A DNA stretch of 64,000 nt from Rhodospirillales bacterium URHD0017. GTDB taxonomy: Bacteria > Pseudomonadota > Alphaproteobacteria > Reyranellales > Reyranellaceae. A program made the position numbers and the translations under genes. Shown piece by piece: positions 1,889 to 4,284 of the stretch; within the stretch, counting starts at the first letter, position 1; the number at the start of each line of letters is the position of its first letter. The DNA lies in assembly GCA_900110395.1 (NCBI GenBank), contig FODP01000007.1, positions 248,001-312,000 of the forward strand, in the 5' to 3' direction. The notes beneath the pieces are model-generated. The model ran no database searches and was not told the DNA's origin. It saw only the letters and a program-made list of their open reading frames with translations.

Positions 1889-3343
1889 ATGCCAGACACC
1901 CTTCTCCCCCGCGACGGCCTGGTTATCGTCGCCAAACGTGATTGCCCGACCTGCGTGCTGGTCGAGCCGGTGATGCAGAGCCTCGACCGCGCCGGTCCGC
2001 TGGCCGTGGTCAGCCAGGACGATCCGACGTTTCCGTCGGGCGTACGCTCGGTGCTCTACGACGATGAGCTCGAACGCTCCTTCCGGCTCAACATCGAAGC
2101 CGTGCCGACCTTGATCCGCTTCAAGGACGGCCGCGAGGTCGAGCGCACCGTGGGCTGGGAGCGCAACGAATGGATGCGCCTCGCCGGCGACGCCGCCGAG
2201 GGCAAGGGCCTGCCGGCGTGGCAGCCGGGCTGCGGCTCCAAGAGCGTCGAGCCCGGCGTGCACGAGGCGCTGATCGCGCGTTATGGCGATCCCGGACTGA
2301 AGTCGCGCGAGATCGCCGTCGGCAACTGGGACGATCCGATGGAAGCCTGTTTCGAGCGCGGCTGGACCGATGGGCTCCCTGTCGTGCCGCCGACCGACGA
2401 GCGCATCCTGCGCATGCTGGGCGGCACCGAGCGCAAGCCCGACGAGGTGGTGGGCCTGATCCCGCCCAACCTCGCGCCCTGCACCGTCGAGAAGGTGGCG
2501 ATCAACGCCGTGATGGCGGGCTGCAAGCCCGAGTACTTGCCGGTGGTTCTGGGCGTGCTGGAAGCGGCGCTGGATCCGCTGTTCGTGATGCATGGGCTGC
2601 TCTGCACCACGCATTTCTCGGGGCCGCTGGTGATCATCAACGGACCGGCCGCCAAGGCGATCGGCATGAACAGCGGCGTCAATGCGCTGGGCCAGGGCAA
2701 CCGCGCCAACGCCACCATCGGCCGTACCTTGCAGCTCATCGTCAGGAACGTCGGCGGCGGCCTGCCCGGCGCCATCGATCGCGCGACCCTGGGCAATCCC
2801 GGCAAGTACACCTTCTGCTTCGCCGAGGACGAGTCCGATCCCGACTGGGAGCCACTGTCGGTCCGCCGCGGCATCGCGCCCGGCAAGAGCGCCGTCACCT
2901 TGTTCCATGGCGAGGGCGTGCACGGCTTCATCGACCAGAAGTCACGCACGCCGGAAGAGCTGGTGCGCTCGCTGGCCATGGGCCTGTTCGGCGTCGGCCA
3001 TCCCAAGCTCTGCGACGCCGGCAACGCGGTGCTGGTCCTGACGCCCGAGCACTACAAGATCTTCAAGGATGGCGGCTGGAACCGCCGCCGCATCGAGGAT
3101 GAGCTGTTCCAGGCGCTGAAGCGGCCGGGCCGCGACCTGGTCTGGGGCGCCCAGAACGTGGCCGAGGGCCTGCCGCCCAAGTATGCCGACCAGGTCGTCG
3201 ACAAGTTCCAACCCATGCCCGACGGCGTGCTGATCGTTCGCGCCGGCGGCGAGGCTGGGCTATTCTCCGCCATCATCGGCGGCTGGCCGGGCCAGCGCGT
3301 GCGCGAGGAATGTCAGTCGATAACCAGGGAGATTCGCCCATGA
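1889..3343 (+). CDS. Thioredoxin-like domain fused to a conserved domain; partner of the UGSC selenoprotein
   Basis: 484-residue two-part protein. Residues 1 to about 100 look like a thioredoxin fold: a beta strand, the redox motif C19-P-T-C22, and a cis-proline loop EAVPTLIRF with Pro73. The remaining 380 or so residues start with a GWTDGLPVVPPT segment and form a domain I recognise as a conserved bacterial family without a firm function. It contains several cysteines and long conserved Gly-rich stretches. No signal peptide is seen, so it is probably cytoplasmic. Its TGA stop overlaps the ATG of the selenoprotein gene (ATGA at 3340-3343), which implies translational coupling and a joint function. 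The CPTC site is a natural electron donor or acceptor for the U-G-S-C centre; that pairing is inference. Confidence 0.8.
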   Translation: MPDTLLPRDGLVIVAKRDCPTCVLVEPVMQSLDRAGPLAVVSQDDPTFPSGVRSVLYDDELERSFRLNIEAVPTLIRFKDGREVERTVGWERNEWMRLAGDAAEGKGLPAWQPGCGSKSVEPGVHEALIARYGDPGLKSREIAVGNWDDPMEACFERGWTDGLPVVPPTDERILRMLGGTERKPDEVVGLIPPNLAPCTVEKVAINAVMAGCKPEYLPVVLGVLEAALDPLFVMHGLLCTTHFSGPLVIINGPAAKAIGMNSGVNALGQGNRANATIGRTLQLIVRNVGGGLPGAIDRATLGNPGKYTFCFAEDESDPDWEPLSVRRGIAPGKSAVTLFHGEGVHGFIDQKSRTPEELVRSLAMGLFGVGHPKLCDAGNAVLVLTPEHYKIFKDGGWNRRRIEDELFQALKRPGRDLVWGAQNVAEGLPPKYADQVVDKFQPMPDGVLIVRAGGEAGLFSAIIGGWPGQRVREECQSITREIRP

Positions 3344-3861
3344 ATTCGCAACCGAAACTGCGCGATCCCACCGCCGAAAGCTCGCCGGTGCGGCGCGCCC
3401 GCCTCACGCCGCCACCATCGCTCGACGGCAAGACCGTGGCGCTGATGGATATCGGCAAGTCGCGCGGCGCGGAGTTCATCGACCGCCTCGAAGGGCACTT
3501 CAAGAAGGCCGGCGTGGCGACGCGGCGCTATGCCAAGCCGACCAACACCAAGGTGGCGCCGACGGCGCTGATGCAGCAGATCGCCGCCGAGAATCAGCTC
3601 GCGGTGATCGCCTTAAGCGATTGAGGCTCCTGCACATCGTGCAGTCTGCACGACATTCATAATCTCGATACCCGCGGCATCCCCGGCGTGAACATCGTCA
3701 CCACGGGCTTCGTCGACGGCGTGGCGGCACAAAGCGAATCGCTGGGCTTCGACCCGGCGGTGGTCTACGTCCCTCATCCCATCCAGAACCGCACCAAGGC
3801 CGAGATCGAAGCCATCGCCGACGACGCCTTCGCCAAGGTAATGGCGCTGCTGAAAAGCTAG
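3340..3861 (+). CDS. UGSC-type selenoprotein with in-frame UGA (Sec95)
   Basis: Read as one 173-residue protein in which the TGA at 3622-3624 encodes selenocysteine. Up to the TGA there are 94 residues. The frame stays open for 78 more sense codons to TAG at 3859-3861. The residues after the TGA are G-S-C-T-S-C, giving a U95-x-x-C98 centre (a Sec version of CxxC) with a further Cys101. The tail continues as an ordinary folded-protein sequence (HDIHNLDTRGIPGVNIVT, later VYVPHPI). This is the signature of the family known as UGSC (seleno)proteins, presumed redox proteins of unknown substrate. Start: ATG 3340 overlaps the upstream stop and has AGGGAG at 3326-3331; an in-frame ATG at 3310 is less likely. 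Ordinary gene callers would report a truncated ORF 3310-3624. Decoding needs selA, selB, selC and selD elsewhere in the genome. Confidence 0.88.
3622..3652 (+). promoter_or_regulatory. Candidate bacterial SECIS element (UGA plus downstream hairpin)
   Basis: The UGA at 3622-3624 is followed by a perfect 6-bp stem CGTGCA (3638-3643) with TGCACG (3647-3652), closing a 3-nt loop GUC at 3644-3646. The apical loop begins 20 nt after the UGA and has G as its first base. This matches what is known of bacterial SECIS elements: within the coding region, loop roughly 16-37 nt after the UGA, G among the first loop bases. A competing 5-bp hairpin can form at 3631-3643. SelB would bind the apical stem-loop. 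Confidence 0.7.
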
Positions 3862-3870
3862 CGGCTACCT

Positions 3871-3960
3871 GTCGTCCTGAGCGTAGCGAAGGACCTCATC
3901 GCCATCGAGGTAGGACTCTGTCGTCGATGGCATGAGATCCTTCGCTTCGCTCAGGATGAC
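3871..3960. repeat. Palindromic pair of dispersed repeats (copies A and B)
   Basis: Copy A at 3871-3903 reads GTCGTCCTGAGCGTAGCGAA and continues to ATCGCC. Copy B at 3930-3960 is its near reverse complement. Together they form a long imperfect hairpin just after the selenoprotein stop that may terminate transcription. Bases 3951-3960 of copy B are also the last codons and stop of the GIY-YIG gene. Copy C of the same repeat lies at 4252-4284. Confidence 0.8.
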
Positions 3961-4244
3961 TCGGGGGCGAGGTCAGCCCATGTAGGATTGGCAGCACGGA
4001 CGAGCTCGTTCTTGCGAATCCGCTTCCAGCCTTTGAGCTGTTTTTCGCGAGCGATCGCTTCGGTTGGATTTTCAAATTCCTCGACGTAGACAAGTCGGGT
4101 CACACGGTACTTCTTCGCAAACTCGCTGCCCTTGCCATTGCGATGCTCGAAAACGCGCCGCCCGATGTCGTTCGTCACGCCGATATACATCGTGCTGAGC
4201 GAGCTGCTCGTCATGATGTAGACGAAGTAACGGTGTTCACTCAT
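3951..4244 (-). CDS. GIY-YIG domain protein
   Basis: 97-residue stand-alone GIY-YIG nuclease-fold protein of the small UPF0213/YhbQ-like group. Visible motifs are VYIM and YIGVT (the GIY...YIG pair), the arginine-containing DIGRR, and the downstream glutamate helix NPTEAIAREKQLKGW. Cellular role is unknown for these small proteins. Base composition differs from its neighbours: a hand count of 4021-4140 gives 63 G+C in 120 (about 52%), well below the flanking genes. The stop codon TGA and the last residues (E-S-S) are encoded by the end of repeat copy B, and a second repeat copy in the same orientation lies 7 nt beyond its start. This suggests the gene moves or spreads together with the repeat. 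Confidence 0.85.
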   Translation of the reverse strand: MSEHRYFVYIMTSSSLSTMYIGVTNDIGRRVFEHRNGKGSEFAKKYRVTRLVYVEEFENPTEAIAREKQLKGWKRIRKNELVRAANPTWADLAPESS

Positions 4245-4251
4245 GGCTGGC

Positions 4252-4284
4252 GGCGATGAGATCCTTCGCTGCGCTCAGGATGAC
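4252..4284. repeat. Dispersed repeat, copy C
   Basis: 33-nt copy of the repeat at 3930-3960, in the same orientation, differing only at a few bases. It begins 8 nt beyond the GIY-YIG start codon, so the gene sits between two direct copies (3930 and 4252, unit about 322 bp). Confidence 0.8.

What the first reader, a model, noticed from the sequence alone, without database searches (positions are those of the whole stretch)
3340..3861. A selenoprotein hidden by a UGA codon: U-G-S-C motif read through at 3622
The ORF would normally be annotated as a short protein ending at TGA 3622-3624. In the same frame the next 78 codons are open, coding-like and end at TAG 3859. The residues straddling the TGA spell U-G-S-C, the signature of the UGSC (seleno)protein family, and the downstream part has no start or ribosome site of its own. 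The combined protein is 173 residues with a UxxC redox centre at 95-98. It would place this organism among selenocysteine-using alphaproteobacteria.
Basis: partly seen in the sequence, partly recalled or inferred. Interest (0 to 1): 0.92.

Follow-up and report, generated by a model that had tools for sequence, protein, structure and literature searches.

The report
UGSC-family selenoprotein with conserved partner
A stop-like TGA codon in this bacterial gene is really read as selenocysteine, giving a full-length protein of a known but unexplained family that travels with the same neighbouring gene and is probably recharged by thioredoxin.

Summary
Confirmed. Window 3340-3861 encodes one 173-residue protein with an in-frame TGA at 3622-3624 (residue 95, U-G-S-C). 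It scores 116 bits against Pfam UGSC (PF24696), and each half matches alone. The genome has selA, selB and tRNA-Sec(TCA) together, selD elsewhere, and five UGSC genes, each with one TGA. In 387 genomes of the class, all 38 with TGA-type UGSC have a strong SelA (66 of 387 overall). In a Blastococcus homologue the codon is TAG and the tRNA-Sec anticodon is CTA, so codon and tRNA change together. A bSECIS-like hairpin is conserved across homologues. What I add: the gene directly upstream (1889-3343) is a constant partner. In 80 of 80 named loci found by the partner, UGSC follows it; some lineages fuse them. The partner carries a thioredoxin domain (CPTC) plus ~330 residues without a recognised family; other paralogues lie near a thioredoxin-reductase-like gene. 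Best reading: a TrxR/Trx-recycled two-part selenoreductase, laid out like GrdB/PrdB; substrate unknown. The modelled UGSC fold is Rossmann/flavodoxin-like, not thioredoxin-like as guessed in 2008.

The parts
3340..3861 (+). UGSC-family selenoprotein gene, 173 aa, start ATG 3340 (ATGA overlap with the upstream stop), stop TAG 3859-3861
3622..3624 (+). in-frame TGA read as selenocysteine (residue 95, motif UGSCTSC)
   Evidence: TGA in 80 and TGC in 2 of 82 aligned UGSC genes; TAG in L100
3637..3653 (+). bSECIS-like hairpin: apical stem-loop TCGTGC-AGTCT-GCACGA after a 12-nt spacer from the TGA, conserved G in the loop
1889..3343 (+). partner gene, 484 aa: N-terminal thioredoxin-like domain with CPTC (residues 19-22) plus a ~330-aa domain without a recognised family; followed by UGSC in 80 of 80 named loci

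Best explanation
Shown by sequence: 3340-3861 is a true selenoprotein gene of the UGSC family. UGA 3622 is read as selenocysteine through the organism's own SelA/SelB/tRNA-Sec/SelD, helped by a bSECIS-like hairpin just downstream; the product has a U-x-x-C redox centre (U95, C98) with a further conserved C101. Shown by comparative genomics: the gene follows, mostly with overlapping stop and start, and in some lineages is fused to, one partner family. The window's partner carries its own thioredoxin domain (CPTC), and two other paralogous systems in the same genome lie beside a thioredoxin-reductase-like gene with CxxC. Inferred: UGSC and partner form one enzyme. The partner's large domain holds the substrate, the Sec selenolate attacks it and is released as a U-C98 selenyl-sulphide, and electrons from NADPH via TrxR and Trx (fused domain here) restore it. 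This is the working plan, as I recall it, of GrdB/PrdB-type seleno-reductases. The substrate is unknown; five diverged systems in one genome suggest several substrates.
For: Sec: family, both halves; selA, selB, selC, selD; five UGSC genes, each 1 TGA; 38 of 38 genomes with TGA-type UGSC have SelA at E 1e-77 or better; 66 of 387 overall; hairpin. Codon and tRNA change together: L100 has TAG at the Sec codon and its genome's tRNA-Sec (RF01852, 64.2 bits) has anticodon CTA. selA and/or selB lie downstream of the UGSC pair in the fetched flank in 11 of 80 named loci (7 proteins from 4 of these loci confirmed by HMM). Partner: 80 of 80 named loci, 4-base overlap in 46 of 76, 5 of 5 own loci, fusion in L024, 40 of 40 further loci of two other paralogue types. 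Electron supply: Trx domain, both CPTC cysteines in the 70 members (of 76) that have the domain, TrxR-like gene in 26 of 40 loci. GrdB resemblance: weak GrdB-model hits in 38 of 82 UGSC proteins.
Against: No reaction or substrate is shown. The GrdB resemblance is local and weak: hhalign probability 31% over 39 columns around the motif; the window protein scores 16 to 23 bits against GrdB-type models with cut-offs of 65 to 800; none of 82 UGSC proteins hits Pfam GRDB. The partner shows no GrdE/PrdA-like family in Pfam or NCBIfam (76 members). Beside the window's own pair no TrxR gene was seen, and 14 of 40 other loci lack it. The hairpin in the window alone is not significant (z -1.27, 18 of 200 shuffles as stable; synonymous p 0.15), pairs outside the six inner ones hold in only 50 and 4 of 80, and one of the two Cys homologues, L076, still folds fairly well there (-7.0 kcal/mol against -8.8 in the window; L036 -3.9). 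The NF041046 score is just under its cut-off.
Confidence: 0.6

Rival explanations
1. UGSC is a thioredoxin-dependent antioxidant enzyme (peroxidase or thiol-disulphide reductase) of the kind usually assumed for uncharacterised UxxC selenoproteins, and the partner's large domain is a regulatory or delivery module.
For: UxxC motif and a Trx-domain partner or TrxR neighbour; reviews assume redox or antioxidant roles for such families (PMC9312934, passages; PMC2398784, passages).
Against: The modelled fold looks Rossmann/flavodoxin-like rather than thioredoxin- or peroxiredoxin-like. A plain antioxidant would hardly need a constant, conserved ~330-aa partner domain with invariant D161, R279, N287, E313, nor transporter genes beside one paralogue; both points are inference.
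Confidence: 0.2
2. UGSC is not the catalyst but a selenol-based repair or activation factor for the partner, which is the enzyme (its large domain has a faint class I fumarase-like match).
For: Foldseek best hit of the partner is a two-subunit fumarase chain, E 7.7e-4, but TM only 0.23 (query) and 0.33 (target); near-invariant C212 (74 of 76) and C310 (75 of 76) in the partner.
Against: The match is weak and did not appear in the VIA list, which was filled by the thioredoxin domain. Sec or Cys with the redox motif is kept in 82 of 82 aligned UGSC proteins, as a catalyst would need too.
Confidence: 0.17
3. The TGA is an ordinary stop or a recent mutation: a 94-aa product, with the rest a pseudogene.
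For: A mechanical ORF list ends the frame at 3624; the window hairpin alone is not significant.
Against: TGA or TGC at this codon in 82 of 82 aligned homologues, conservation on both sides, Sec machinery present, SelA in 38 of 38 genomes with TGA-type UGSC, and TAG with a CTA-anticodon tRNA-Sec in L100's genome.
Confidence: 0.01

Closest known systems
UGSC family (seleno)protein, NF041046 / PF24696
   Same: Near full-length match, UGSC motif at the same place, Sec at the TGA.
   Different: Diverged member (19 to 30% identical to the other four copies in its own genome); just under the NCBIfam cut-off; five copies in one genome.
GOS 'UGSC-containing protein' and its 'Unknown_1' fusion domain (PMC2398784)
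   Same: Same Sec family; that paper reports UGSC fused to an unknown domain, as in L024 here (passages).
   Different: That paper guessed a thioredoxin-like fold and, in the passages I saw, did not describe a constant separate partner gene. I could not see its Figure S1, so identity of Unknown_1 with my partner is inferred.
UAG-encoded UGSC selenoproteins of Geodermatophilaceae (PMC5330540, passages, citing earlier work)
   Same: Same family; L100 (titled Candidatus Blastococcus massiliensis) shows exactly this, with the partner gene upstream.
   Different: The window's organism uses UGA and a TCA-anticodon tRNA-Sec.
Glycine/betaine/sarcosine reductase GrdB and D-proline reductase PrdB (PF07355, TIGR01917/01918, TIGR04483)
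   Same: UxxC or CxxC in a similar stretch; small Sec subunit with a larger partner and thioredoxin-type electron supply (pathway facts recalled).
   Different: No significant family-level match; partner not GrdE/PrdA-like by Pfam or NCBIfam.

Membership tests
UGSC family (seleno)protein (PF24696 / NF041046) | Full-length profile match | tested here: met
   PF24696 116.4 bits, cut-off 25, profile 2-171/172. NF041046 121.3 bits, profile 1-146/147, but cut-off 125, so just below NCBI's own naming threshold
UGSC family (seleno)protein (PF24696 / NF041046) | [U/C]GSC motif at the conserved position | tested here: met
   U95-G96-S97-C98; 82 of 82 aligned homologues keep [U/C]GSC
Bacterial selenoprotein gene | selA, selB, selC, selD in the genome | tested here: met
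   selA TIGR00474 565 bits, selB TIGR00475 431 bits, selD TIGR00476 377 bits; tRNA-Sec RF01852 71.5 bits, ARAGORN anticodon TCA
Bacterial selenoprotein gene | bSECIS stem-loop just downstream of UGA with a conserved G in the apical loop | tested here: met
   Window alone weak. Across 80 TGA-type sequences mean synonymous z -2.11, 91% below -1, against 7 to 27% at four control positions in 74 or 75 of these genes; six inner stem pairs kept in 76 to 80 of 80, next outer pair in 50 of 80, loop G in 79 of 80. Coding constraint and kinship contribute; Cys homologue L076 keeps a fair hairpin
Bacterial selenoprotein gene | Selenium in the full-length protein | not testable with these tools
   needs 75Se labelling or mass spectrometry
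GrdB/PrdB reductase selenoprotein (PF07355) | Family-level sequence match | tested here: not met
   No PF07355 hit in 82 UGSC proteins at E 0.01; NCBIfam GrdB-type models 16 to 23 bits for the window protein against cut-offs 65 to 800; hhalign 31% over 39 columns against three GRDB-like sequences
GrdB/PrdB reductase selenoprotein (PF07355) | GrdE/PrdA-type proprotein partner | tested here: not met
   No such family among the matches of 76 partner proteins in Pfam or NCBIfam at E 0.01
Thioredoxin-fold selenoproteins (fold guessed for UGSC in PMC2398784) | Thioredoxin fold in UGSC | tested here: inconclusive
   Model pLDDT 91.9 shows alternating strand-helix order and its listed matches are flavodoxin-, TIR-, PurE- and receiver-like folds; absence of a family from those lists does not exclude it

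The most novel reading that the evidence does not exclude
UGSC selenoproteins are the Sec-bearing subunits of an undescribed class of two-part, thioredoxin-recycled seleno-reductases: UGSC plus a partner family absent from Pfam and NCBIfam, sometimes fused, fed by TrxR/Trx modules, spread over many phyla and radiated into five or more parallel systems per genome for different substrates.
Probability: 0.4. Interest if true: 0.65.

Novelty: new member of a known kind. Interest (0 to 1): 0.4.

Why it matters
The gene itself is one more member of a catalogued selenoprotein family that a standard reading would cut to 94 residues. The larger point is that the family, one of the commoner selenoproteins in aquatic metagenomes (255 sequences in PMC2398784, passages) with no known function, has a constant genetic partner and a recognisable electron supply. 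That makes its function directly testable: co-express UGSC, partner and Trx/TrxR and look for the substrate. It also shows a genus in which all 37 genomes searched carry two to five UGSC genes, so selenium is likely to matter to its physiology.

Tried and rejected
Ordinary stop or pseudogene: rejected on conservation on both sides of the TGA, Sec machinery, SelA co-occurrence and the TAG/CTA case.

Filing UGSC under GrdB/PrdB: rejected for lack of a family-level match, kept as a working analogy.

Class I fumarase fold for the partner's large domain: Foldseek E 7.7e-4 with TM 0.23 and 0.33, absent from the VIA list, which the thioredoxin domain filled. Not claimed.

UGSC to chain H of the MCR activation complex, Z 12.4, rmsd 2.8, 129 aligned, 12% identity: the best row, but not far above many unrelated rows; not used.

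Gene neighbours as a clue to substrate: in 85 loci (80 named, five own) clustered by blastp, the pair recurs widely (clusters in 76 and 57 loci by my own gene caller, which does not read through TGA); next are selA (10 loci), an SDR-like cluster, selB and a thiolase-like cluster (9 each; the two 'like' names are by eye). TRAP-like transporter genes were sought only beside L022- and L024-type copies. No substrate could be named.

An early idea that L100 (Blastococcus) held a decaying UGSC copy was wrong: on rechecking, its two fragments meet at a TAG that its tRNA-Sec can read.

Recall only: the likeness of the hairpin's position and loop to the E. coli fdhF element, and the Grd/Prd chemistry, are from memory and were not tested.

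Papers: passages only of PMC2398784, PMC13188914, PMC9312934, PMC5029168, PMC7539508, PMC5330540; search listings. I found no paper naming the partner or a UGSC function in those searches; most subscription papers and Figure S1 of PMC2398784 were not seen.

Full report
Observation. The frame from ATG 3340 runs through a TGA at 3622-3624 and on to TAG 3859-3861; read with TGA as Sec it is 173 residues with U95-G-S-C98. Pfam's UGSC model covers it nearly end to end (116.4 bits, cut-off 25), and the parts before and after the TGA match on their own at adjoining profile positions, 2-92 and 94-171. NCBIfam's NF041046 scores 121.3 bits against a cut-off of 125. An in-frame ATG at 3310 exists, but ATG 3340 overlaps the upstream stop as ATGA, and a 4-base overlap is the commonest arrangement in homologous loci (46 of 76; four of the 80 named loci were left out because no UGSC hit there scored over 120 bits; for each locus the start codon nearest the partner's stop was taken).

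Selenocysteine machinery. The genome holding the window (G000, 8.18 Mb, 99.64% complete) has selA, selB and tRNA-Sec on one strand of contig C21: SelA TIGR00474 565 bits, SelB TIGR00475 431 bits, tRNA-Sec RF01852 71.5 bits with anticodon TCA about 30 bases past the selB stop. selD is on contig C29 (377 bits). The formate-dehydrogenase helper fdhE lies near selA. Of eight RF01852 matches only the C21 one is a tRNA-Sec by ARAGORN; the others are tRNA-Ser, Cys, Gly or Tyr.

Homologues. The genome has five UGSC genes, each with exactly one in-frame TGA. All 37 genomes of the genus that were searched (own included) carry two to five UGSC matches, nearly all with one TGA; exceptions are one match without a TGA in G002 and one with three in G032. 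Of the 24 other relatives in that call one (G048) has UGSC. In a class-wide sample of 387 genomes at least 90% complete, 41 have UGSC; 38 have at least one TGA-type copy, and all 38 have a strong SelA. I counted as strong the 66 genomes with PF03841 at E 1.1e-77 or better, leaving out 30 of 96 with only weaker matches (E 4.5e-18 or worse). Fisher p is about 5e-35, not corrected for kinship. The other three genomes have only UGSC without TGA; one of them has SelA (G431), two do not (G495, G522). In 82 aligned UGSC proteins the Sec position is TGA in 80 and TGC in two (L036, L076), with G96, S97, C98 and F124 invariant. The genus is read as Reyranella from the nearest named loci: L026, a Reyranella MAG, partner 96% identical; L033, Reyranella aquatilis KCTC 52223, 86%.

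A natural control. In L100 (record title Candidatus Blastococcus massiliensis) the UGSC frame is broken by TAG, not TGA, at exactly the Sec codon. Its genome has a tRNA-Sec (RF01852, 64.2 bits) that ARAGORN labels tRNA-Pyl because its anticodon is CTA. Codon and tRNA have changed together, as reported for Geodermatophilaceae, UGSC proteins included (PMC5330540, passages). This supports strongly that the codon is read by tRNA-Sec.

Hairpin. The window's stretch after the TGA folds into an apical stem of seven pairs, but that alone is unremarkable (z -1.27; 18 of 200 shuffles as stable; synonymous-codon p 0.15). Over 80 TGA-type sequences the picture is clearer: with amino acids held fixed and codons redrawn (300 draws), the real segment is more stable (mean z -2.11; 91% below -1; 55% with p 0.05 or less), while four control positions in 74 or 75 of the same genes (60 draws) give mean z between -0.36 and 0.31 and 7 to 27% below -1. 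The six inner stem pairs hold in 76, 80, 80, 79, 79 and 80 of 80 sequences; one of them varies as GU, GC, AU and CG; the next outer pairs hold in 50 and 4 of 80; the loop G is kept in 79 of 80. Against this, one of the two Cys homologues still has a fair hairpin (L076 -7.0, L036 -3.9, window -8.8 kcal/mol). Most sequences are related and the codons encode conserved residues, so this supports a bSECIS but is not independent proof.

The partner. The upstream gene (1889-3343, 484 aa) ends inside the UGSC start. Record titles span Alpha-, Gamma- and Deltaproteobacteria, Burkholderiales, Myxococcota, Gemmatimonadota, Chloroflexi, Acidobacteria, Actinomycetota and others. These 80 are the nearest relatives of the window's partner, so they say little about how often the wider partner family occurs without UGSC. 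In the own genome all five UGSC genes have a partner homologue beside them, and in L024 the UGSC C-terminal half and the partner form one reading frame. The partner's first ~100 residues are a thioredoxin fold (Z up to 10.0, rmsd 2.5, 101 aligned; TIGR01068 hits in 29 of 76 members) with both CPTC cysteines in the 70 members of 76 that have the domain. At E 0.01 the only Pfam matches among 76 members are TraF (10), Thioredoxin_2 (5), TXD17-like (2) and, in the fused one, UGSC; TraF I take to be the same thioredoxin-like part, though positions were not printed. The remaining ~330 residues are thus unnamed. D161, R279, N287 and E313 are invariant in 76; C212 is Cys in 74 and Ala in 2.

Electron supply. 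Two of the five own loci have a TrxR-like flavoprotein with a CxxC centre next to the pair (TIGR01292 172 and 217 bits, below its naming cut-off of 343). In 40 further loci of these two paralogue types, which I picked from the match lists, a partner is present in 40 and a TrxR-like gene in 26 (12 of 20 fused type, in L157 on the other strand; 14 of 20 L022 type); many are from one genus and so not independent, and the CxxC was checked only in the two own proteins. In 11 of 80 named loci selA and/or selB lie downstream of the UGSC pair within the fetched flank, a lower bound because some contigs end early (7 proteins from four of these loci confirmed by HMM).

Fold and mechanism. The UGSC model (pLDDT 91.9) is an alternating strand-helix sheet, with residue 95 between strand 87-93 and helix 96-111; its listed matches are flavodoxin-, TIR-, PurE- and receiver-like. 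That speaks against the thioredoxin-like fold proposed in 2008 (PMC2398784, passages), without excluding it. GRDB-like proteins have a similar stretch around C/U-x-x-C; 38 of 82 UGSC proteins hit the GrdB model TIGR01917 weakly (best E 2.6e-5); profile comparison gives only 31% probability over 39 columns. I therefore read UGSC as working like a GrdB/PrdB Sec subunit without filing it there. Steps shown: Sec coding, partner linkage, Trx and TrxR linkage. Steps inferred: complex, electron path, substrate attack by the selenolate. My odds: Sec read-through about 0.98; two-part Trx-recycled enzyme about 0.6; GrdB/PrdB-type attack chemistry about 0.3.

Place in the literature. UGSC-containing selenoproteins were described in metagenomes (255 selenoproteins, 21 Cys homologues; PMC2398784, passages), appear in a 2016 table with the numbers 26 and 33 (column heads not seen; PMC5029168, passages) and are listed among families of largely uncharacterised function in a 2026 review (PMC13188914, passages). 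The 2008 paper reports a UGSC/Unknown_1 fusion; I infer but could not check that Unknown_1 is the partner domain. No paper found was seen to name the partner, a function, or Reyranella selenoproteins.

Verdict. The finding is real and correctly interpreted, but it is a member of a known family. The constant partner, the thioredoxin link and the five copies raise it somewhat above an ordinary family hit.

Noticed in passing
L136 1273-2000 (own genome, contig C15): A PrdB/GrdB-like protein (TIGR04483 105 bits, below its cut-off of 300) also has an in-frame TGA, giving U-P-A-C: probably a second selenoprotein family in this genome.
   Followed up: partly
window 3871-4284: A GIY-YIG nuclease gene (3951-4244, minus strand, PF01541) sits between 33-base inverted repeats (91% complementary) right after UGSC. 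None of ten nearest loci (L026-L035) has a GIY-YIG hit, and in L026 the next gene follows UGSC by about 60 bases, so this looks like an insertion; L031 and L034 carry a pair of repeat copies there without the gene.
   Followed up: partly
L100 7407-7901 and L178 1501-1592: A Blastococcus UGSC gene uses TAG as the Sec codon, and its genome's tRNA-Sec has anticodon CTA (ARAGORN calls it tRNA-Pyl). Already reported for this family of bacteria (PMC5330540, passages).
   Followed up: yes
L024 8960-11799: TRAP-transporter-like genes (by eye) lie beside the fused UGSC copy and recur in L139, L141, L142, L154 and L157: a possible clue to that paralogue's substrate.
   Followed up: partly
L051 7485-8517: Two UGSC genes in tandem, both with TGA, after one partner gene.
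   Followed up: no
L078 7501-8002: UGSC lies in two overlapping pieces in different frames, a frameshift or sequencing error; the TGA motif is in the second piece.
   Followed up: no
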